NCBI RefSeq assembly: GCF_000499845.2
Contig: NC_023749.2
Span: 44,147,608-44,211,607 of the forward strand
DNA from: Phaseolus vulgaris
Lineage: Eukaryota; Streptophyta; Magnoliopsida; Fabales; Fabaceae
DNA length: 64,000 bases
Direction of reading: 5' to 3'
The notes under the pieces were generated by a model. That model did not search any database and had not been told where the DNA came from. It saw only the letters and a program-made list of their open reading frames with translations. This document shows, in pieces, positions 51,901-64,000 of the stretch. Each line of letters opens with the position of its first letter. Positions within the stretch are counted from its first letter, which is position 1. Position numbers and translations under genes: made by a program.

Positions 51901-53096
51901 ATTGGAATATTCCCTTCTCTTTACAGCAGATGCCTCTTTTTTTTAATCATATCATGATTAGAGAGGAACAGGATATTCCTAATTGGATTCTAAATGAGTC
52001 TGGTCGTTTCACTCTTAAATTGGCTAGGATTTTTTTCTTGGAACCAGAAGTTCCAGGTGGTTGGGGTAAATTCATTTGATCTTCATCTATTCCGCCTTCC
52101 AAAACTCTAGTACTCTGGAAAAATTTTCATGGGCGACTTCCTACAGATCAACATATTCAGAATAAGGGTTTGCATATATGTTCTATGTGTTCGCTTTGTG
52201 AAAAGCAAGAGGAATCTATTCAACATCTATTTTTTGATTGTTCTAACGCATTGCATATTTGGAGTTGGGTACGACAAATTTTTCTTACTTCTCATTTCTC
52301 TAATAAGGATGGTCTACTTTCTTTTATTAAGAGTGATGGTAGTCCTTTGGTTAAATTGATTAAGCTTTCGGTGATAACCTTTTCTATATGGATGATATGG
52401 CAAATGAGGAATTATTCTATATTTCAGGATAAGATTGGGGTTTCTAAGGCTATTTCGCTAATTAAAGATTTAACTTGTTTAGTGGGAAATTCGTCTAAAG
52501 CTTCAATGAAGAATGATATGTTGGACTTCAACGTGATTAAGTTTTTCGGTATTAAGACTCGTAGTGGTAAAGTTTTTCGTCCTCTTCCTATTAGATGGGA
52601 ATTTCTTTCACCAGGTTGGGTCAAAATTAATACTGATGGGGCTGCTAGGGGGTATCCTGGTCTTGCTACTTGTGGAGGTATTTTTCGTGGGAGTATGGGA
52701 GAATTTCTTGGTGCTTTTTCAGCTTTTCTTAAAGTTCAAACTGCTTTGGTTGCTGAGTTTTATGGAGTTATACATGCTATGGAGGAAGCTCAAAAAATGG
52801 GACTTACTAATGTCTGGCTTGAATGTGACTCTGCCTTGGTTTGTGCTGCGTTTACTGCTAGGACTAATGTTCCGTGGATGCTTCAGAATCGATGGAATAC
52901 TTGTCTTAATTTTTGTGGGACAATCAGGTTTAGGCTAACTCATATTTTTCGTGAAGGGAATGCGTGTGCTGATAAGTTGGCTAATTTAGGATTTATTCAT
53001 AGAGAATCTTTTCATTGGTATAATAGACTCCCAGCTAGTCTGTTCTTAGAATTCTTTATGAATAGGTATAATCTACCTATGTATCGTTTGTGTTAA
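48975..53096 (+). pseudogene. LINE ORF2: endonuclease, RT, RNase H
   Basis: ATG at 48975 overlaps the ORF1 stop (ATGA). Endonuclease: FFWNVRGLGN, AEPMM, FAGVYGAN, ILEDFNAML, NCSDHSPIL. A one-base shift near 50180 changes frame. RT: SAPGPDGFGG, DYRPIVVANFKFKIISKIL, ADRLA, NQYGFMQGRQ, KVDIHKAFDTL, RGVRQGDPLSPLLF, active site LYADDIFIF (about 51045-51070). TGA at 50449 stands where Trp is expected. A shift near 51300 and TGA at 52077, again for Trp, follow. A zinc-binding region has CSLCEKQEESIQHLFFDC. RNase H at about 52620-53000 (INTDGAARG; ECDSALV; REGNACADKLANLG). Confidence 0.93.
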
Positions 53097-53284: not shown

Positions 53285-54720
53285 TAAGTTACTTAAAGAA
53301 AAGAAAAAAAATAAAATAAAATGCATTAGTCAATTTTTATAAATAAAATTAATTTATGTATTTTGAAGTCGGGTGGTTGATTTTAATTCTTAGAAAAATT
53401 GAATTTCTCTTTGCTTTCTATTTATAAAAGTTCATAGAGAATTTATATTTGTAGTATGTATGCATAAATATGAGTAAAAATAATCCACATTTGCAATCTT
53501 ATCATTGGGCATCTTTGTCCATTTCCTATGTGTAAATTTTGAAAAAATATTATGGATTATAGAATTCACAATAAATATTTTTTGAATTTTATAATCTAAG
53601 ATGTAATTTAAAAGAAAAACATTTTAGTTTGTTGAATCTAAAATAGATATACTTTTTTTAATTCTACCATCTAGAATATGTAAATAAAAAAAAACATTCT
53701 AAATTGTGGAATTTAAAATATATTTTTTAAATATAAAATTATCTTTTGGTCTGACTAATAAGAGTGTGAAGAGAAGGAGGTGCAGGAAGAAATGCCTCTT
53801 GATATAGAATACATAAACAACAAGATTACTATAGATCTATAATGACAAATTTAGAAGTGAATGCAATTATTATTTATCACTTTCGCATTTACTAATTAAT
53901 ATATATATACGATTTTATAAAATAAAGATCACAATCTAATCACTAATAGATACTGAAAGATCAAAACTATTAACAATGAACGATTGTTGAAAATTGGTAA
54001 AAGGTTTCGTACTTTATAAATGGGCATTGATATTTTGACAACTTGATTTCAGTTGCTTCAAAATACAACATTTTGACATGATGATTTTAATATTAAATAA
54101 ATTGTGTGTGGAAATTTTATAAAAAATTTGCATTTGAAATGTGCATTTCTGAAATGGGATCTGCGAATGAAAATTGTTTGAAATGTGAGTTTGAAAGGTA
54201 GGAGGATTCTCGATTTCGAAGGAAGAACATTTCGTTTGAGGGTTGTGGATTGTGAAGGTAGACCATTTATGTTTGAGGGTTCTTGGTTGTGAACGAAGAG
54301 GTGCGATTTTGAGGGATTAGGGTTTTCGATTAGGACGTTTTCGATTGTGGCAGTTTTTTAAGGGAGAAGGAAGCATAGGAGAGGTGCGTTGTCATCTTGA
54401 GGGGTTTAGGGTTTTTGTTTAAGAGTGTGATTTTGATTGAGGTATGTATTTTGGTTCGTTTGGTACAGGGTTATTTGTTTGATTCTTTTGTTATTGCTTT
54501 GATTTTAGTTTTTTAGCGTTGAGTGTAGTGTAATTTCGTTTGTTTGTTTGGTGTTGTGGTTTTTGAGTTTTGAAGTTTGAATGGATTTGGATTTCATTGT
54601 TTTGTACTCTGCGATTTTGGGACTGGTTTTGAAGTTTTTGTGTGTCCAAAAGGTTTGGGATTGAGTTACTCGTGATAGAATTTATTGTGAATGCTAATGT
54701 ACTGAATTAGTGACACTGAC
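53285..54720. other. Intergenic, then probable leader of the next transposon gene
   Basis: To about 54150 AT-rich without features. 54150-54480 is G/T-rich with repeated TTTGAGGGTT(G/T)T and GATTGTGAA words, suggesting the promoter or leader of the plus-strand gene at 55336. Confidence 0.4.
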
Positions 54721-55190
54721 ATGGGGAAGTGGTGACCCTTTCTTTTTTATGTGGTGACCTACTAAGCACTTTTTGCACTGTCATGTTGTCTTACCAGTGT
54801 TATGTTTGCATATCCTGTTTTGGTGTTGTGAGGGTTGAAAAGAGAGTCCAGTGAAGTGATTGAAGGTTAGCCAATTGATTATTGTAAGGGTAGTTTCAAA
54901 TGTGGTATGTGTAGGTAAGTGATGACCGCTTTTTTTTTATGTAGTGACCTATGGAGCACTTTTTGCACTGTCATGTTGTCTTACCAGTGTTATGTTTGCA
55001 TGTCCTGTTTTGGTGTTGTGAGGGTTGAAAAGGGAGTGCAGTGAGCTGGTTGAAAGTTAGAGAATTGATTATTGTAAGGGTAGCTTCAAATGTGGTATGT
55101 GTAGGTATTTATGCACTGATATTTTGGTTTTATGAGGGCTGAGATGGGCAAGGGGTGACCTATGTGGGAATAGGTGGTGACCTGCCACCA
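54720..55190 (+). repeat. 190-bp repeat array with paired GGTNACC motifs, array 1
   Basis: Two near-identical units spaced 190 bp (compare GCACTTTTTGCACTGTCATG at 54766 and 54956), plus a divergent third. Motif pairs start at 54731/54753, 54921/54943 (degenerate) and 55154/55176, always 22 bp apart. Confidence 0.88.
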
Positions 55191-55335
55191 CGTTTTTGCA
55201 TAGTTAAAATTTGTATGCTTTTTATTATTTTCTTGCATGTATTTTGCTGGGGCAGTATTTATTTTGGTTTTTGTAGAATTGAATTGTGGTGTTCATGGTT
55301 TTCAATTGATTGAGTAATTACGTGTTCAGGATATA

Positions 55336-56912
55336 ATGTCAAGTAGCGGATGTTCAGATGAGGACGTTGTTACGATTGATCGTCATCCTAAGCCTCAAGC
55401 TAATGTTTGATTGAAATGATGATTTTTTTTTAAAGTAGACATGATGGTATATTTATTTTTTGACCATTTTATATATTAAAGTGTATTTGTATTTGATTTG
55501 ATATACAGGTGTTTAGGCATAATTGCAAGTCAAAGTGTTTGGGTCTTGTGAACAACAACTTAAGTTTGGGACAAAAGTCTATTATACAGTCCACCCCATT
55601 TGGATGGCTTATGTTTGTGCGTGAGAAGATAAAATTGAGTCGTGGACTTTTAAGTAAGTTATGTAATGCTTGGGTGGAGAGGAAACATCGTTTTGAAATT
55701 CACTGTCAATTTGTGTCGTTTAGTTTGTTAGATGTGTGTTTAGGTATAGGTCTAAGAGTAGTTGGTACAAAAATTTATTTAAGGAAAACTATAATTATAT
55801 CTCGCATTAGGAGTTTTTTTTAAGAAGGCGATGTAACTGTGGAAATTATTTATTCTGAAATTTTGAAACGTGACAACGATATTTTAGAGGACTTTTGTAA
55901 GTTGTACATCCTGTTAGGATTGTCGAAGTTTTTTTTGCCTACTAGAATGGGTTTAGTTCATGATGGAATGTTTCACATTGTTAATGATTTAGACAAACTA
56001 GGTACGTATAATTCGGGGGGATTAGTGTATGAGATTTTGGATGACCCAAGAAAATATGTCGTCTATCCATATGAATGGTTGTGTTTACCTGTTGCAGGTA
56101 ATATGAAACATTTTTGTTATTGCTAAGTGTTTGTAATAATTGTGCATGTCTTTGACTTCGTAATAAAAGGGTTTTTTTATTCATTCTTCAGATATGGGCG
56201 ATGGAGCATTTGTTCTCTTATAAGCGTCATGTACCTATAAGTGGAAATAAATATTCCAGTATCATGCATTGGATGGATGTTAGAGTTGGTGACCATGAAC
56301 TTCGACGTGGTCTGTGTAAGAATATGGTATGTCGTTTTTATTGAATTTGTATTACATTAATGTTGTTCGAAATGTAGATAATTAAGTTTGGAATTATATA
56401 TGTCAATGAACAGGTTGTTGTTGAGTTATGTGTTTTGAATGAAGAATTTCACAATGAATTTTTTTCAAGAAGCTTTTCACCAATTTGGTTGTGGAATTAG
56501 GAAGAAGAAAGCAACAAAGGATAAAGTTTGTACAATGATGGTGATAGTTGTTGAACTAATGCGCAAATGTGAGGAGCAGGAGGTATTAATCACGAGTATG
56601 GAGAAAGAGGTGAAGGACATACTTGAGTTAGTTGCAAGCAGAGATTTTGTTCCTTACGATACTCGTTCCGAAATAGTTGAAGTTGAACCTCTTTCAGTGG
56701 ATTGTACATACTTCAAAAAGCCAGAAAGTAGTGATGAAGATGTACATGAAGAGAAAGACTTACATGGAAATGAAGACCGACCAAATGAAGAAGTCAACAT
56801 GTTTTCTAAAATGAACCGTGAACCCAGAAAATGTTTCAAGACTACTGTTTTGAGAACACCTTGGAGAACATATTCAAAGAGGAAAGGAAAAAACCTAAAA
56901 AGTTATGCTTAA
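55336..56912 (+). pseudogene. Plant transposon gene related to Ulp1-type elements, N-terminal part only
   Basis: Exons by splice sites: 55336-55404, 55509-56097, 56192-56326, 56414 onward. Exon 1 starts MSSSGCSDEDVVTIDRHP. Exon 2 has STPFGWLMFVREKIKLSRGL, LCNAWVERKHRFEIH and FVSFSLLDVCLGIG, then EIIYSEILKRDNDILEDFCKL and YILLGLSKFFLP. This layout fits the N-terminal domain of plant Ulp1/DUF1985-type transposon proteins. Exon 3 is IWAMEHLFSYKRHVPISG with MHWMDVRVGDHELRRGL. Exon 4 ends in an acidic and basic tail (VLRTPWRTYSKRKG). A stop at 55821, a shift near 56075 (GCVYLLQ lies in another frame) and one near 56470 break it. No protease domain follows. Confidence 0.7.
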
Positions 56913-57364
56913 GAAGTTGGTCAATTGATATGTTTTTAGGTTTTTCTGGTTTTAAGTTAGTGGGTTTATGGTTTATTGACATTATTGATACGATTGTAAT
57001 TTATGTGCTATTGTAGAATTTATTTTCTTATGAAATTGTCGTAACAAATATTTTTGTTGAGGACTTATTTATTGTGGAAACTCGGATTGTATGAGTGGAT
57101 TTATTTTGTGATTCATTGAGCATTGTTTATTGACTTTGTAAGCTTTGCAGTTAAATTTGGTGACTTGATTGTATTCTTGTGTAGTACTCTTTGTTCAGAT
57201 GGTTTTGTTGAACTTTGTAGTCAATATGGTCAATTCTATTGTGTGTAAAACTGAGTTGAGTGGATGTGATGATAGTAATTGCAATGCGTCGTGGTCAAGT
57301 TGTGAATACTTTATGCATAACTTCTCAATACTTTAGGAAATTGAATACTGCAAGAGTACCTTGA

Positions 57365-57770
57365 AATGTGGTATGTGAATGTAAGTGGTGACCACTTCAT
57401 TTTTAATTGGTGACCTGTGAAGAACTTTATGCATTGTCATGTAACCCTACAAGTGAATGTTTGCATGTGATTTTTTTGGTGTTTTGAGGGTTCAGATGGG
57501 AGTCTAGTGAACTCATTCCATGTTAGGACATTAAATAGTGGAAGAGTAGCTTGAATTGTGGTATCTGAATGTAACTGGTGACGCCTTTGTTTTTAATTGG
57601 TGACCTGTGAAGAACTTTATGCATTGTCATGTAACCCTACAAGTGAATGTTTGCATGTGGTTTTTTTGAAGTTGTGAGGGTTGAGATGACAGTCTAGTGA
57701 ACTCATTGAAGGTTAGGAAATTCAATAGTGAAAGAGTAGCTTGAATTGTGGTATGTGAATATAAAATAAT
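57365..57770 (+). repeat. 190-bp repeat array with paired GGTNACC motifs, array 2
   Basis: Two units exactly 190 bp apart (GGTGACCTGTGAAGAACTTT at 57409 and 57599). Motif pairs 57387/57409 and 57577/57599 (the first of the latter pair reads GGTGACG). Confidence 0.9.
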
Positions 57771-57829
57771 ATTATTCTCTTCCCTATGTCTTAAAACAAA
57801 ATAATCATCTCACAAGCCTTGTTATAATA

Positions 57830-58322
57830 AACAATAATTATGCACACAAATAGAATTATAATAGCAATAAATAATTACAATAATATTAATAATATTATTA
57901 TTAATAATAATATTAATATTAGTATTATTAATAATAATATTAATATTAGTAGTTATTATTAATGCTATTGTAATTATTATTAATATTAAAATTACTATAC
58001 TTAAATCTATTGTAATTATCATTAATATTTCAATTATTATTATTAATCTTAGTTTAATTATCATTAATTATTATATTTATTATTATTAATTTTATTTTAA
58101 TTATCATTAATATTATATTTATTACTATTAACATTATATTAATTATTAATATTAAAATTATGATTCTTAATATTATCGTAATTATGATTAAAAATAAAAT
58201 ATTTATGTTTAATATTTTTGTAATTATTATTAATATATAAATTATTATTATTAATATCATTGCAAATATTATTCATATTATTGTAATTATTATTTATAAT
58301 AAATATATTATTAGTAATATGT
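57830..58322. repeat. Interrupted ATT/AAT repeat, left of the foldback element
   Basis: Imperfect ATT/TTA/AAT repeats. The long minus-strand ORFs here are low-complexity Ile/Asn runs, not genes. Confidence 0.88.
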
Positions 58323-58967
58323 TTTTGATCATGATGGGGTTATTTTTTTTGCTTTTTACTAAAATGGGGTCCGTTTAAAAAAAAATTACAAATTTAGACA
58401 AGTTGTACCAATTTGGCACGACTTCATATGCACAAATCGTTCCAATTTGACATACTGAAGTCGTGCCAAGGCGGCAATGTCATCAGGAGTTAATGGCTCA
58501 AAGTTTGAATAAGCTGATTATCCAAACATGATGCATACACGATTATCCAATTTTTTGTTCCTTAAAACTAACACTCTTAGAAAATTATGTATCAAATTAA
58601 TTTTTAACATTACATAACTTACTACCCAATATATAAAGAATAAATTTTTTTTTAAAAAATATGACGTGGCAGAAGTCGTGCCAACTTGGCACGACTTCAG
58701 TATGATATGACAGAAGTCATGCCAAGTTGGCACAACTTCAGTATGACAGAGCAGAAGTTGTGCCAAGTTGGCACAACTTCAGTATGACAGAGCAGAAGTT
58801 GTGCCAAGTTGGCACAACTTCAATATGACATGGCAGAGTCGTGTCTAATTGAGACGATTTGTGCATATGAAGTCGTGTCGAATTGACACGACTTGCCTAA
58901 ATTTGTAATTTTTTTTAAACAGACCCCATTTTGGTAAAAAGCAAAAAAAAAACCATCATGGTCAAAA
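58323..58967. mobile_element. Foldback/MITE-like element with about 135-bp terminal inverted repeats
   Basis: Left end TTTTGATCATGATGGGG; right end on the other strand TTTTGACCATGATGG. Both continue through GCTTTTTACYAAAATGGGGTC, AAATTTAG, and the ACTTCATATGCACAAATCGT segment. No ORF. It sits inside the ATT repeat, which continues at 58968. Target duplication unclear because the flanks are repetitive. Confidence 0.8.
58670..58870. repeat. 41-bp tandem repeat of palindromes
   Basis: CAGAAG-type starts at 58670, 58711, 58752, 58793 and 58834, exactly 41 bp apart. Units centre on the palindrome AAGTYGTGCCAANTTGGCACRACTT; one arm in some units carries a change. Confidence 0.9.
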
Positions 58968-59160
58968 TCCCATTATTGTAATTATTATTAATATTACAAT
59001 TATTATTATTATTATATTAATTATTATTAATATTATTATAATTAATATTAATATTATTATTATTAAGATTACATTTATTATTACTAATATTATCGTAATT
59101 AATATTAAAAATAATCTCTTTCATATTATTATTACTAATAATTTCATTATTATTATTGTG
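58968..59160. repeat. Interrupted ATT/AAT repeat, right of the foldback element
   Basis: Continuation of the microsatellite after the foldback insertion. Confidence 0.88.
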
Positions 59161-59269
59161 TGAAACCAATGAATATCACTGTCCAGTCATTCATGAACCG
59201 AAATACAGCTAGAGACTTTTACAAGTTGACTTTATTGCAAGTGTCCCAATCTCGCTAAATCCACAACAC

Positions 59270-59720
59270 ATTGGCATGACCATGCAGAAACTATGTCATG
59301 GGTCACCACTTATGAACTCATAGGTCACCACTTACATTACAAGGTTTCTTATGACCACCACTACGTGGGTTCACCCACCCAATTCACGTTCATACCCTCC
59401 ACCTAGGTCCCTTCACACACATCATTCACTTCCAAGTGGTGAATCCCAATAACCAACATAAAAAACATGACCATGCACAAACATTGTCATGGGTCACCAC
59501 TTATTAACACATAGGTCACTACTTACACTACAAGGTCTCCTATGACCACCACTACATGGATTCACCCACCCAATTCACATTCATACCCTCCACCTAGGTG
59601 CCTTCACACACATCATGCACTTCGAACTCATGAATCAAATAACCAAAATGAAACACATGACCCTGCTGTACAAAAGTTGGCATGGGTCACCACTTATAGA
59701 AACTAAGGTAACCATTTACC
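59270..59720 (-). repeat. 190-bp repeat array with paired GGTNACC motifs, array 3 (inverted)
   Basis: Units start CCATGCANAAA at 59280 and 59471 and CCCTGCTGTACAAA at 59661, a 190/191-bp period. Motif pairs, here reading GGTCACC, start at 59301/59323, 59492/59514 and 59685/59707 (last as GGTAACC), all 22 bp apart. Read on the minus strand they match the plus-strand motif order of arrays 1 and 2. Confidence 0.9.
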
Positions 59721-60039
59721 TGTATGTCCAACACTACCAATAAATGTTTTCACTAAAAAAAACACTCAATATCGGTGAATTTATTAACATACAATTTTAC
59801 ATTTGTGGCATCCAATGACACATTTGTGCCCAAAATATGATATATAACAATACTACACTATGTATAGTGCATACTTGCTTACACAAAAAAGAAATTTCTT
59901 GCATCCCATTTAAATATACATGAATTAAATAACTTAAATCAAACTCAAATTACTTTCATTCATCAAACAAATGTATATATATTGTCCACGTGTACTCATA
60001 ATAAGTAACATTTTTGTAAATAAGAACGAAAATGTACAA
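59721..60039. other. Spacer between array 3 and the Ulp1 gene
   Basis: AT-rich, presumably the 3' UTR of the minus-strand gene. Confidence 0.4.
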
Positions 60040-62430
60040 TTACAAGAAAAATATGTCATCATTATCCAAATTTGTCAAGACGGTTTCTCGTTCAACATTA
60101 CGCTCATCCAACACCCAAGAAAAAAGCATTTCTTGACGAAAGCTTAGGAGGTCCTTCTGAATAATATATCATGGAATCAGTTTCCAATTACCAAATTCTA
60201 AATTAAAGGTGTAAACTCATGAAAATAGTTATTACTGTGGTGTAATTGGGAAAGGTTTTCCCATCCAATTGTTGTGAACCATCCCACAACTCGATATATT
60301 TGACAACTAAAATGTCATAGTCATAACTGCATAGAACAAATAAATTTTTAACTCTAAACAAAAATTCAAAATATTAAGTCCAAACCAATTAAAATACATA
60401 TAAAATCAAAATAAATAACACTATTACTTTCAATACTAACCTATTTGGTTGTAATGGAATCTTTTGTTTTATCAATGAAATTTGAGGACCACTCTTTCCT
60501 AAGAAGTCGTCAAGAATTTAAAAAAGGTGATGGAGTCGATTAACCTACAAGATGCAATTTAACAAGAATGACAAACAAATTCAAACCAAATGAATTCATT
60601 AACTATTAAAGAACATGCAATTATTTACCATTGCTTTATCAATCTTCTATCGACCTTCAATTCCATGACCAATGGAGTCCAACACATGCAATTGCCTCGT
60701 CCGAAAATTGAATGTGTACAACCACCAATGGTCATTGAACACGGTTGGCACAAAGATCTACAAAACAATGCAAAATTTAAATCGACAGTCAACATCAACA
60801 TTCTAAACAACACCAACAAAATTTGCACAAAACATCGCCAATATTAACTTACAAAATCACAATACGATATTCCCTGGTATGATAATCAGAACTGGACCAT
60901 GAAATTTGTCCCTCATTCATGTTGATCTCCTCAATTACACGAGTTTGTAACAACCAACTCTTATTATTACTATTACCAAAAACTTAAAACAAATAACAAG
61001 AAATTTAAATGCACACTAACCGCAAAAAGCGGATTGAATGAAAACTGATTCAGCACTCTAAATTTCACAATTTGATTCAGATTTAACAACCGGTTACAAA
61101 TAACATAACCTACAACCACATTCAACATAACTAAGTAAATAATATAAGTACATACAACAAACACAGCAATATGAAAATTTTTACCATGTTGTCAACTTTT
61201 GACCGCAGCCTTAATGATTGCAAATCCAGCTTTGTCAAAATATTATTTTGTATGTCCACAATAACACTACAACAACATTTAACATCAACTCATCAATCAT
61301 GCAATAACAACAAATCAAGTAATAACTAAAATTACTTATGTTGCACATTAAGTATAGTTACTTACCGTTTTATGTTAAACTTAAAGGCAAAATTTTTTTA
61401 TACATCTTCAAAATATCCAAACTAGATGAGCTTGGACCGACACAGGTTGCACTAGCAGAGTTTAGGTTGGGTCCACATGCACAAATCCAAGTGACCACTG
61501 CTTTTCTTTATGAAGCAGTTGTCAGACCTCTTTAAGTTGTTTATCCAAATCAACAATTCTATTTTGGTTATTTGCAACTTTCTTCTCACAAACTTTATGT
61601 TGGTCAAGTAAGTTCTCCCACTCACTTGTACCATCACTAGATTCCCCAACTCCCTCATCTGAATCTGCTAAGGCTTCTTTAACAATTTTTATACCTTCCT
61701 CTTCAGCGGTGACTGGTCAATCCCATACAATATGAAAAAAACAATAATTTAAAATTACTAAAAAATTATTGCAAAAGTATGCACCAAAAACTTAACCAAT
61801 CCAAAAAATACCTCAGCAGATAAAAACAGTTTATGTAACCTTCTTCCACGATTATTTACATATGGTTAGTGCAAAAATCGTGAAAAACCAATACAATCGA
61901 CATGGTCACCAACACCCACATGGTGAACTGCCCACACCTATTTCCAAAAAATAATACACAAGTAATTAACATTTAATCAAAATGACCAATTCATTACAAA
62001 ATCATAATTGTACAAATTTTCACTAACCTGTAACATGGCAACACAACCTGTCAAATATATTTCACGGGCATTCTTCTCTTGATAGTACACTTCAGATGCC
62101 CTCCTCAAACTTGTAGCTAATACATTATACATTGCACCACAATTATATAAATCTAACGCATGTAAATTGTCTAACAATTTAAAAGGAAAACATTTAAATG
62201 TCCTAGAAGTCCTAGGAACATAAAAAAAACACATAACCCAAGCAATATGTATAACCTACCAAAATCATCTACACTTTTCTTTCTATTCAAATTCTTGTCC
62301 CACAACATTTTTACAATTGTTTCTAATTTAATTTTTTCCCCATCATCAAACAACCTATTCACCAAACCTCCCCCGTCATTCTCCAATTTCACCTCCCTCC
62401 CCATCCTAATACAAAACATACATCAACAAC
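60040..62430 (-). pseudogene. Transposon-encoded Ulp1 (C48) protease-family protein, catalytic Cys replaced
   Basis: Minus-strand exons recognised: about 62404-62028, 61937-61813, about 61710-61540, 60757-60629, about 60550-60440, 60326-60236 and 60157-60040 (stop). N-terminal block LNRKKSVDDFGRLYILLGL is followed by a one-base shift in an A8 run (62222-62229). Then come DLYNCGAMYNVLATSLRRAS and LTGCVAMLQ|VWAVHH, homologous to the plus-strand gene at 55336. An acidic coiled-coil part follows. Ulp1 domain: FVPTVFNDHWWLYTFNF (His) and LHVLDSIGHGI (Asp), then QPNSYDYDILVVKYIELWDG, where QPNSYDCG is expected. So Cys reads Tyr and the next Gly reads Asp. Stops at about 61870, 60645 and 60530 add to the decay. 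Confidence 0.8.
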
Positions 62431-62969
62431 TGAAAAATGAAGTAAACTTTTTTGAATCCTAAATATACTGTTATTTGATGCCCATCTACTTAGTAGCTCT
62501 CTCAGAAGGCTGTTAGAAATGTATAATACTTTGTCCACTTCAACCATCTACTTGAATGGAGTTTGTTGAATCCTTTCTCGTTAAAAGATGATAAGTTTAT
62601 GGTTGACATCAACAATATATTGAGTCTGCACATTGTGCCTAACTCGTACCTGCAAACTCATAAAATAAAATAATACCATCTTTATTTATTCAACAATGTC
62701 ACTTCACAAAATATTCAACTATTATGAACACAATATAAAAACAGTACCTTCAATTCAGCTTTTGCACGGGAGAAAAAAAATCTTGGACAATGAACTTTCC
62801 ATTCTCTAAACCTTAAAAAACGATTCATTTAATCAAAAACAAAATAGAGAACACAATAAGTCACAACAAACCTCACACAATAAGTCAAAGAGCAAATAAC
62901 AAAAAACCTCTCACAAAGCACATAACAAAACAACTTAGTTCTCAAAGACAGCACAAAAAATCACATTCG
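62431..62969. other. Upstream region of the Ulp1 gene
   Basis: No further exon identified with certainty; a reading LVVKVEVDKVLYISNSLLRE-like near 62470-62540 could be an upstream exon but is unsupported. Confidence 0.3.
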
Positions 62970-63150
62970 AAGATTAAGTTGGAAGGTTACATGACAATGC
63001 ATAAAGTTCTTCATAGGTCACCACATAAAAACAAAAAGGCCACCACTTAGATTCACACACCACATTTCAAGCTACCGTTAGAATTATCATTTGTCTAACC
63101 TCCAATGAGCCCATTACACTCCCTTTAGAACCCTCACAACACCAAAAAAG
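62970..63150 (-). repeat. 190-bp repeat, array 4 (inverted), cut by an LTR
   Basis: Read on the minus strand it carries TTTTGGTGTTGTGAGGGTT, AGCTTGAAATGTGGT, and GTGACCTATGAAGAACTTTATGCATTGTCATG, matching arrays 1 and 2. Motif pair at 63016 (GGTCACC) and 63038 (GGCCACC), 22 bp apart. The unit is broken at 63151 by the LTR. Confidence 0.88.
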
Positions 63151-64000
63151 TGTTGAAGATGGTTGCTGCCCCTTCAAGACATGTGTTTGATGAAGACTTT
63201 TATGTACATTTCATGTATTTTTACATTTGCTTTAAGAATGTCTTAGGTAGTGTTTAGAGGTTGTTTAAGAGTAGGCTTTTTGCTGAGTAACTCACCTCTT
63301 AACCACTAACCATGTGATAAGAGCAAGCACAAAATTTAGAAAACTGTTTTTCACATGTTTTACAAAAAACACGTTTACTGCATAAAAATAAATCTGTTCT
63401 TTTCTAAATAAACAAATTCATTTTTAAATTGATGCCTTGGCTAAGTCTTGTGAAAATTAGATTTTATGTATCAAGTATTTTGACTAAGTCTTCTACCTTT
63501 CAAAACGATTGTGTTTTAAATAGTTAAGCTTTTTCTGTTTTTGTTTTGAAAAATAAATTTGTTCATCTGTAAATGAATAGATTCTTTTTTTACTCTGGTG
63601 CCAAGTCTACCTCAAACGGTTTTAAATTTGTCCCTGCACCAGAATGGCTGACTAAGTCTCCTCTCATAACAAATTCTCTAACTTCTTTTTGAAAATAAAT
63701 CTGTTCATTTTATTTTCAATCTGTTCATTTCATAACAGCTTTAACTGTTTTTCAAAAATCTGTTATAAGTTGGTTTTCTGTAAAATGAAAACTTATTTCT
63801 AAGTTTAATCATCGATCATACAATTGAGAAAACAAGTTTTGCATAAGAGAATTAGGGATTTACAAAGAATTAGCATATGTTCTTGAAAGATTTCGAAAAT
63901 CAAAAAGTTCTTCTTCTTGTTTGATTCCAAAAGCTTGGTGAGAGGTGCTGCTACTGTTTTAGCAATCTGTTCTACTGGTTTAAGGCAGATTTCTGCATCC
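63151..64000 (+). repeat. SIRE/Maximus-like LTR, runs off the window
   Basis: Starts TGTTGAAGATGGTTGCTGCCCC and follows the LTR at 6202 closely for 850 bp, including the AATAAATCTGTTC words. No polypurine tract precedes it, only the interrupted 190-bp repeat, so it is a 5' LTR or a solo LTR. Confidence 0.9.

What the first reader, a model, noticed from the sequence alone, without database searches (positions are those of the whole stretch)
54731..63044. Nine GGTNACC pairs, always 22 bp apart, in 190-bp repeats around two transposon genes
Seen: motif pairs at 54731/54753, 54921/54943, 55154/55176, 57387/57409, 57577/57599, 59301/59323, 59492/59514, 59685/59707 and 63016/63038. Every pair is spaced exactly 22 bp although the bases between and around them differ strongly between arrays. 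Units repeat every 190-191 bp in three separate arrays. GGTNACC is a self-complementary motif, and 22 bp is two helical turns. Inference: a dimeric or tetrameric transposon protein binds here, and the 190-bp period (near a plant nucleosome repeat) may place one site pair per nucleosome. I know of no described element with this arrangement.
Basis: partly seen in the sequence, partly recalled or inferred. Interest (0 to 1): 0.82.

Follow-up and report, generated by a model that had tools for sequence, protein, structure and literature searches.

The report
Paired-motif arrays in bean jumping genes
A decayed jumping gene in the common bean genome carries arrays of paired short DNA sites, set 22 letters apart, that recur beside many of its relatives and look like landing pads for a protein the jumping gene itself makes, perhaps to escape the plant's silencing.

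Summary
All nine pairs are spaced 22 bp; five are exact, three have one mismatch, one has two. The exact pair occurs 603 times in the 537.7-Mb genome against 18 for the reversed pattern. The genome is probably common bean (one 100% protein match).

The conserved unit is not the palindrome alone but a directional site, GGTNACCAnnT, repeated at 22 bp. With the gap free, 95 of the 100 listed sites have period 22, while repeat units vary from 150 to 245 bp.

The host element is a Mutator-like transposon. Better-preserved copies carry a FAR1-MULE-SWIM transposase, an HROB-like gene and two convergent paralogous PMD/DUF1985-like genes, one with Ulp1-like exons. No transposase match was found in the window. 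A sister subfamily keeps the architecture with GGTCCCC instead.

Best reading: target sites of an element-encoded PMD/DUF1985 protein, working like Arabidopsis VANC anti-silencing factors, which bind short motifs in tandem repeats. Binding and demethylation are inferred. New variant of a known kind.

The parts
54022..54069 (+). left terminal repeat of the element: GGGCATTGATATTTTGACAAC, then a copy of the terminal core TTGCTCCACCATACAAC with 3 mismatches at 54053
   Evidence: core scan; alignment to relative L032 begins at 54029
54709..55182 (-). array upstream of gene A: pairs at 54731, 54921 and 55154 (and a 2-mismatch pair at 54709); the directional site reads on the minus strand
55336..56912 (+). 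gene A, decayed (one in-frame stop and a frameshift by reading of the ORF list): PMD/DUF1985-like
   Evidence: ORFs; PMD E=6e-4, below the curated cut-off; 83.5% DNA identity to E1 over 1512 bp; start codon and splice sites placed by eye
57333..57764 (-). array downstream of gene A: pairs at 57387 and 57577
57768..59160 (.). ATT-rich stretch with a foldback/41-bp palindromic repeat insert, where relatives carry the HROB-like gene and the transposase
   Evidence: no transposase or HROB match in the whole window
59275..59719 (+). array between the insert and gene B: pairs at 59301, 59492 and 59685
60203..62679 (-). gene B, decayed: PMD/DUF1985-like exons, then Ulp1-like exons; the relative E1 reads DCG where the window reads DYD
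   Evidence: (80.2% DNA identity to E1 over 2961 bp); exon limits approximate
63016..63044 (+). single pair upstream of gene B, in a repeat unit related to the 57387 array

Best explanation
The window holds a decayed copy of a Mutator-like DNA transposon. Its arrays are cis-acting target sites for a protein encoded by one of the element's two PMD/DUF1985-like genes. Each repeat unit offers two directional sites (GGTNACCAnnT) exactly two helical turns apart, so that a dimer or a protein with two binding units sits on one face of the DNA; tandem units raise local occupancy. By analogy with VANC, occupancy removes silencing marks from the element and so lets its genes, in particular genes A and B next to the arrays, be expressed. 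Shown: motif, spacing, directionality, link to the gene set, decay of the window copy. Inferred: which protein binds, that it binds at all, dimeric binding, and loss of silencing.
For: 603 pairs against 18. Directional pattern with free gap: 416 matches (216 + 200) against 2 in the reversed control; of the 100 listed, 95 have period 22. In the fetched loci, 68 of 72 neighbouring site spacings of 11-60 bp are exactly 22, and none in 20 block shuffles. Unit length varies 150-245 bp, so the spacing is held while the rest drifts. One pair per array (27 arrays): unselected columns +7 and +10 are 0.94-0.96 conserved in both sites against 0.57 for the inner spacer and 0.43-0.48 for flanks. Architecture: E3 has 7 pairs beside gene A (5 exact) and 6 exact pairs beside gene B, with an open 769-aa FAR1-MULE-SWIM transposase between. 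27 of 39 transposase loci of at least 55% identity have gene A or B within 15 kb, against 0 of 12 below 55%. 19 of 39 motif clusters lie near element genes, random mean 0.36. E1/E2 keep the 22-bp architecture with GGTCCCC. Precedent: VANC21 binds YAGTATTAY and VANC6 regions carry other motifs, both in tandem repeats of noncoding DNA; VANC has DUF1985 (PMC5735166).
Against: No binding, methylation or expression data. DUF1985 is only a sub-threshold match (best E=5.5e-4, 20.3 bits against a cut-off of 35.1); no DUF287 match was listed. The PF09331 genome search found nothing, with nothing in its controls either. 20 of 39 motif clusters have no listed element gene within 15 kb. E1 has no pair upstream of gene A, and its array downstream of gene A is inverted relative to the window's. 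Units are homologous, so some conservation is shared descent. Motif type follows gene clade only loosely.
Confidence: 0.52

Rival explanations
1. The arrays are binding sites of the element's own transposase (FAR1-type DNA-binding domain), as subterminal repeats are in other cut-and-paste transposons; the pairs help assemble the transposition complex.
For: The transposase carries a FAR1 DNA-binding domain. In E3 both arrays lie towards the ends. Gene-poor derivatives keep the arrays, and some also the terminal core, e.g. L008, L010, L013, L014, L015, L016.
Against: Internal arrays lie between genes in E1, E2 and the window. The terminal repeats shown contain no GGTNACC in the parts printed. 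Arrays are absent upstream of gene A in E1. The motif differs (GGTCCCC) between families whose transposases are about 75% identical, which does not decide the question.
Confidence: 0.2
2. The arrays are promoter or enhancer repeats read by a host transcription factor that drives genes A and B.
For: Arrays lie upstream of gene A in E3 and in the window, and upstream of gene B in E1, E2, E3 and the window.
Against: Arrays also lie downstream of genes (window 57387, E1 6870 and 12735). The motif changes between sister subfamilies, which is easier with a co-evolving element protein than with a fixed host factor.
Confidence: 0.15
3. The arrays are neutral satellite DNA; the 22-bp step and the motif are inherited from one ancestral unit.
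For: Units from different families share flanking sequence as well (TGTGCARAAA about 10-20 bp before the first site).
Against: Flanks and inner spacer are about half conserved and unit length varies, but the two sites and their distance do not; 95 of 100 listed sites at one period. Near-triplets also step by 22 (L014, L018, L019).
Confidence: 0.13

Closest known systems
VANDAL Mutator-like transposons of Arabidopsis with VANC anti-silencing proteins (PMC5735166)
   Same: Mutator-like transposon; DUF1985-related extra gene; short motif in tandem repeats of noncoding DNA; motif differs between related families.
   Different: Here the best Pfam match is PMD, DUF1985 is below cut-off and no DUF287 match was listed; transposase has a FAR1 domain; terminal inverted-repeat cores occur in several copies; motifs come in strict 22-bp pairs; two convergent paralogous genes and an HROB-like gene. 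Binding untested.
Ulp1-carrying VANC genes (KIU, Kaonashi) of non-TIR MULEs (PMC13317346, passages; Sasaki 2022 not held)
   Same: Gene B joins a PMD/DUF1985-like region with Ulp1-like exons in a MULE.
   Different: Gene A shows no Ulp1 match; several copies have terminal repeat cores; Ulp1 match is just under the Pfam cut-off.
Plant mobile domain (PMD) proteins MAIN/MAIL1 and TE-encoded PMD proteins (PMC8616336, PMC6419827, passages)
   Same: Genes A and B match PMD; [quoted passage not shown]
   Different: Those passages tie PMD to Ty3/gypsy elements and name no target motif; here PMD-like genes sit in a Mutator-like element next to motif arrays.

Membership tests
Mutator-like element (MULE) | MULE transposase domain | tested here: met
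   E3: PF10551 4.5e-36 in an open 769-aa frame; E1: 7.4e-34 in a broken gene. Not met by the window copy itself: no transposase match in the 64 kb.
Mutator-like element (MULE) | terminal inverted repeats and 9-bp target duplication | tested here: inconclusive
   Terminal core at 3 mismatches or fewer in 8 of 28 loci (L005-L032) and in the window; on both sides only in L010 and L015. L015 is flanked by AAAATAAAA on both sides, in A-rich DNA, read by eye. No core in E1/E2; no right end found for the window copy in 6 kb beyond the window.
VANDAL / VANC anti-silencing system | DUF1985 domain in the candidate protein | tested here: inconclusive
   Sub-threshold: E1 gene B 5.5e-4, E1 gene A 0.0064, E3 gene A 0.055; cut-off not reached. 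PMD is the better match.
VANDAL / VANC anti-silencing system | DUF287 domain | tested here: not met
   Not among Pfam matches at E up to 1 for the exons given; only exons were searched, not whole proteins.
VANDAL / VANC anti-silencing system | short motif clustered in tandem repeats of the element's noncoding DNA | tested here: met
VANDAL / VANC anti-silencing system | the protein binds the motif and causes loss of DNA methylation | not testable with these tools
   needs EMSA, DAP-seq and bisulfite sequencing
Plant mobile domain (PMD) family | PF10536 match above the curated cut-off | tested here: inconclusive
   Single exons just below 34.9 bits: 31.9, 32.6, 31.6; window gene A 19.5. Relative P0004 (57% identical to E3 gene A) 68.5 bits, 7.8e-19.
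Ulp1 (peptidase C48) | C48 match and His/Asp/Cys catalytic residues | tested here: inconclusive
   E1 gene B exons joined by X: PF02902 8.1e-4, 19.7 bits against a cut-off of 20.7; HWW, VLDS and DCG seen in E1; window reads DYD.

The most novel reading that the evidence does not exclude
FAR1-type Mutator elements of legumes carry their own class of sequence-specific counter-silencing factors, PMD-type proteins, that read strictly phased 22-bp site pairs; two paralogous factors per element guard the two ends, and a one-base change of the site (GGTCACC to GGTCCCC) has split the family into independent systems.
Probability: 0.3. Interest if true: 0.78.

Novelty: new variant of a known kind. Interest (0 to 1): 0.6.

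Why it matters
[quoted passage not shown] This finding offers a concrete candidate: PMD-like genes in a Mutator element together with a genome-wide set of candidate binding sites, in a crop, with subfamilies that differ at one base of the site. The idea becomes directly testable with short probes. The strict 22-bp pairing, if it is a binding constraint, would also say something about how such proteins grip DNA, which the VANC single-motif description (PMC5735166) does not.

Tried and rejected
Nucleosome phasing by a 190-bp unit: rejected as a general rule, units are 150-245 bp. GGTNACC as a pure palindrome: rejected, columns +7 and +10 are conserved on one side only. DUF1985 genome search: no match, but its controls also gave none, so no conclusion. 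Rfam and tRNA scans of the window: no match. Solved structures for E1 gene A: none at E up to 1. A structure model of P0004 with 17 sequences had mean pLDDT 58.2 and was not used further. Motif strings in papers: 461 papers hold one of four strings; none of the 10 listed is about a plant transposon by its title. Common-bean transposon annotation (PMC4093653, passages): no Ulp or mobile-domain mention in the main text. Motif type against gene clade (rows, read by eye): the three separate loci with a gene 55-57% identical to window gene A carry GGTCACC; of nine loci with a gene of at least 66% identity, six show only GGTCCCC-type sites and three are mixed; L032, the relative whose C-terminal part matches the window best among those listed, has one exact GGTGACC pair and one with two mismatches. 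Suggestive only: few loci, related to each other.

Rows dropped before counts: 51 of the 70 rows (19 second fragments of the same loci left out) and 91 merged loci, only contigs C1, C2 and C3 up to 32.66 Mb, because one search lists 100 of 416 matches; the genome protein searches scored 120 of 357, 58 of 437 and 150 of 300 candidates. L001-L004 were left out of all counts because they overlap L005 and L006.
Full report
What was checked. The nine pairs are at the stated places and all have a 22-bp step. Five are exact, three carry one mismatch and one carries two. In 100 shuffles of the window no exact pair arose; with two mismatches allowed the window has 10 against a mean of 0.59. The window lies on contig 11 of a 537.7-Mb genome. 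A protein of a related element in that genome is 100% identical to a Phaseolus vulgaris record, so the plant is probably common bean.

Genome-wide test. GGTNACC-N15-GGTNACC occurs 603 times; the reversed pattern occurs 18 times. With a free gap of 0-30 the counts are 1300 and 579, so this one gap accounts for a large share of the excess. In 20 fetched 10-kb loci and the window, 83 pairs with at most one mismatch were lined up. The conserved part runs on past the palindrome: GGTNACCACWTA, twice, 22 bp apart. In a second count with one pair drawn per array (27 arrays, 200 draws) and orientation chosen from flanking sequence only, columns +7 and +10 of the first and second site were 0.96 and 0.94, and 0.95 and 0.94, conserved; the inner spacer averaged 0.57 and the flanks 0.48 and 0.43. 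The GGTNACC columns were used to select the pairs, so their own conservation (0.99 and 0.96) is not independent evidence.

Spacing. A directional pattern GGTNNCCACWTA with a free gap of 0-30 gave 416 matches against 2 in the control. Of the 100 listed, 95 have period 22, two have 21, and one each 20, 18 and 38. In the fetched loci, 68 of 72 spacings of 11-60 bp between same-strand sites are 22, two are 44, one 48 and one 49; 20 block shuffles gave none. Repeat units within arrays range from 150 to 245 bp. So the step between the two sites is held while unit length drifts. That is the main reason to think the step is functional rather than a relic.

The element. Three better-preserved relatives were read: E1 (L025+L026), E2 (L027+L028) and E3 (L029+L030). 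Reading left to right they carry gene A (+), an HROB-like gene (-), a transposase (+) and gene B (-). E3 has an open 769-aa transposase with FAR1, MULE and SWIM domains; in E1 and E2 the transposase is broken. Gene A and gene B are paralogues with sub-threshold PMD (about 1e-7) and weaker DUF1985 matches; a relative from the protein database matches PMD at 7.8e-19, and 14 of the 28 proteins found carry a precomputed PMD label. Gene B also has Ulp1-like exons, just under the Pfam cut-off. The HROB match in E1 is above its cut-off (3.3e-9).

Linkage. Of 39 transposase loci with at least 55% identity to E3's, 27 have a gene A or B match within 15 kb; of 12 less similar ones, 0. Of 39 motif clusters on C1, C2 and the listed part of C3, 14 have a gene A/B match within 15 kb (random mean 0.21, largest 2 in 200), and 19 when gene B and transposase matches are added (random mean 0.36, largest 3 in 1000). 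The other 20 have none listed; some of them (L008, L010, L013, L014, L015, L016) share the element's terminal core or gene and HROB remnants (L010, L013, L015).

The window copy. Gene A (+, 55336-56912) and gene B (-, 60203-62679) are 83.5% and 80.2% identical in DNA to E1's over 1512 and 2961 bp. Both are decayed: gene A has a stop and a frameshift, gene B reads DYD at the position of the DCG of E1. No transposase or HROB match was found in the 64 kb; an ATT-rich stretch with a foldback repeat lies in their place. The left end is at about 54022, where a terminal-repeat core and the alignment to relative L032 begin. No right end was found within 6 kb beyond the window.

Sister subfamily. In E1 and E2 the same architecture, with 192-bp units, carries GGTCCCCACTTA-N10-GGTCCCCACTTA. 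The genome has both forms and mixed ones. Motif form follows gene clade in tendency only (rows; see Tried and rejected).

How it probably works. VANC proteins of Arabidopsis VANDAL elements carry DUF1985, bind a short motif that lies in tandem repeats of noncoding DNA, and remove DNA methylation; the motif differs between families (PMC5735166, parts 1-3 of 6 read). Some VANC genes carry an Ulp1 domain (PMC13317346, passages). The bean element has the same set: a Mutator-like transposase, PMD/DUF1985-like genes with or without Ulp1, and motif arrays. I therefore take the arrays as target sites of a gene A or gene B protein that counters silencing, with two sites per unit on one face of the helix. 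The paired architecture, the directional site and the coupling to a FAR1-type element are shown; binding and anti-silencing are inferred. Rivals are transposase binding, a host factor and plain descent.

Limits. One genome, no functional data, capped listings, and homologous units that are not independent. E1 lacks an array upstream of gene A, and array orientation is not constant. The Sasaki 2022 study on such systems in eudicots is not held and is known here only through passages of a review, so overlap with it cannot be excluded.

Noticed in passing
L025:7567-8478, L027:5241-6116, L029:5482-6266 (minus strand); fragments in L009, L010, L013, L015: An HROB-like (homologous recombination OB-fold) gene recurs between gene A and the transposase in these elements; its retention across subfamilies suggests a use to the transposon.
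   Followed up: partly
58314-58971: Foldback element with 41-bp palindromic repeats inside an ATT-rich stretch; the same sequence lies beside the array of L008 (7565-7861).
   Followed up: no
L006, L011, L012, L017, L023, L024: Short elements of roughly 600-900 bp made largely of arrays with GGTAACC pairs and related to each other; no element gene matched in them.
   Followed up: partly
L010, L013, L015, L030: 60-bp-type tandem repeats (TTGAGCGAAAATAGGGCAGTGCTGAAGGGG...) fill the middle of several of these elements.
   Followed up: no
63150-64000: Sequence starting TGTTGAAGATGG abuts the last repeat unit and looks by eye like an inserted LTR; not tested.
   Followed up: no
52080-53096: Open frame of 338 aa that looks by eye like the end of a LINE-type reverse transcriptase/RNase H.
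   Followed up: no
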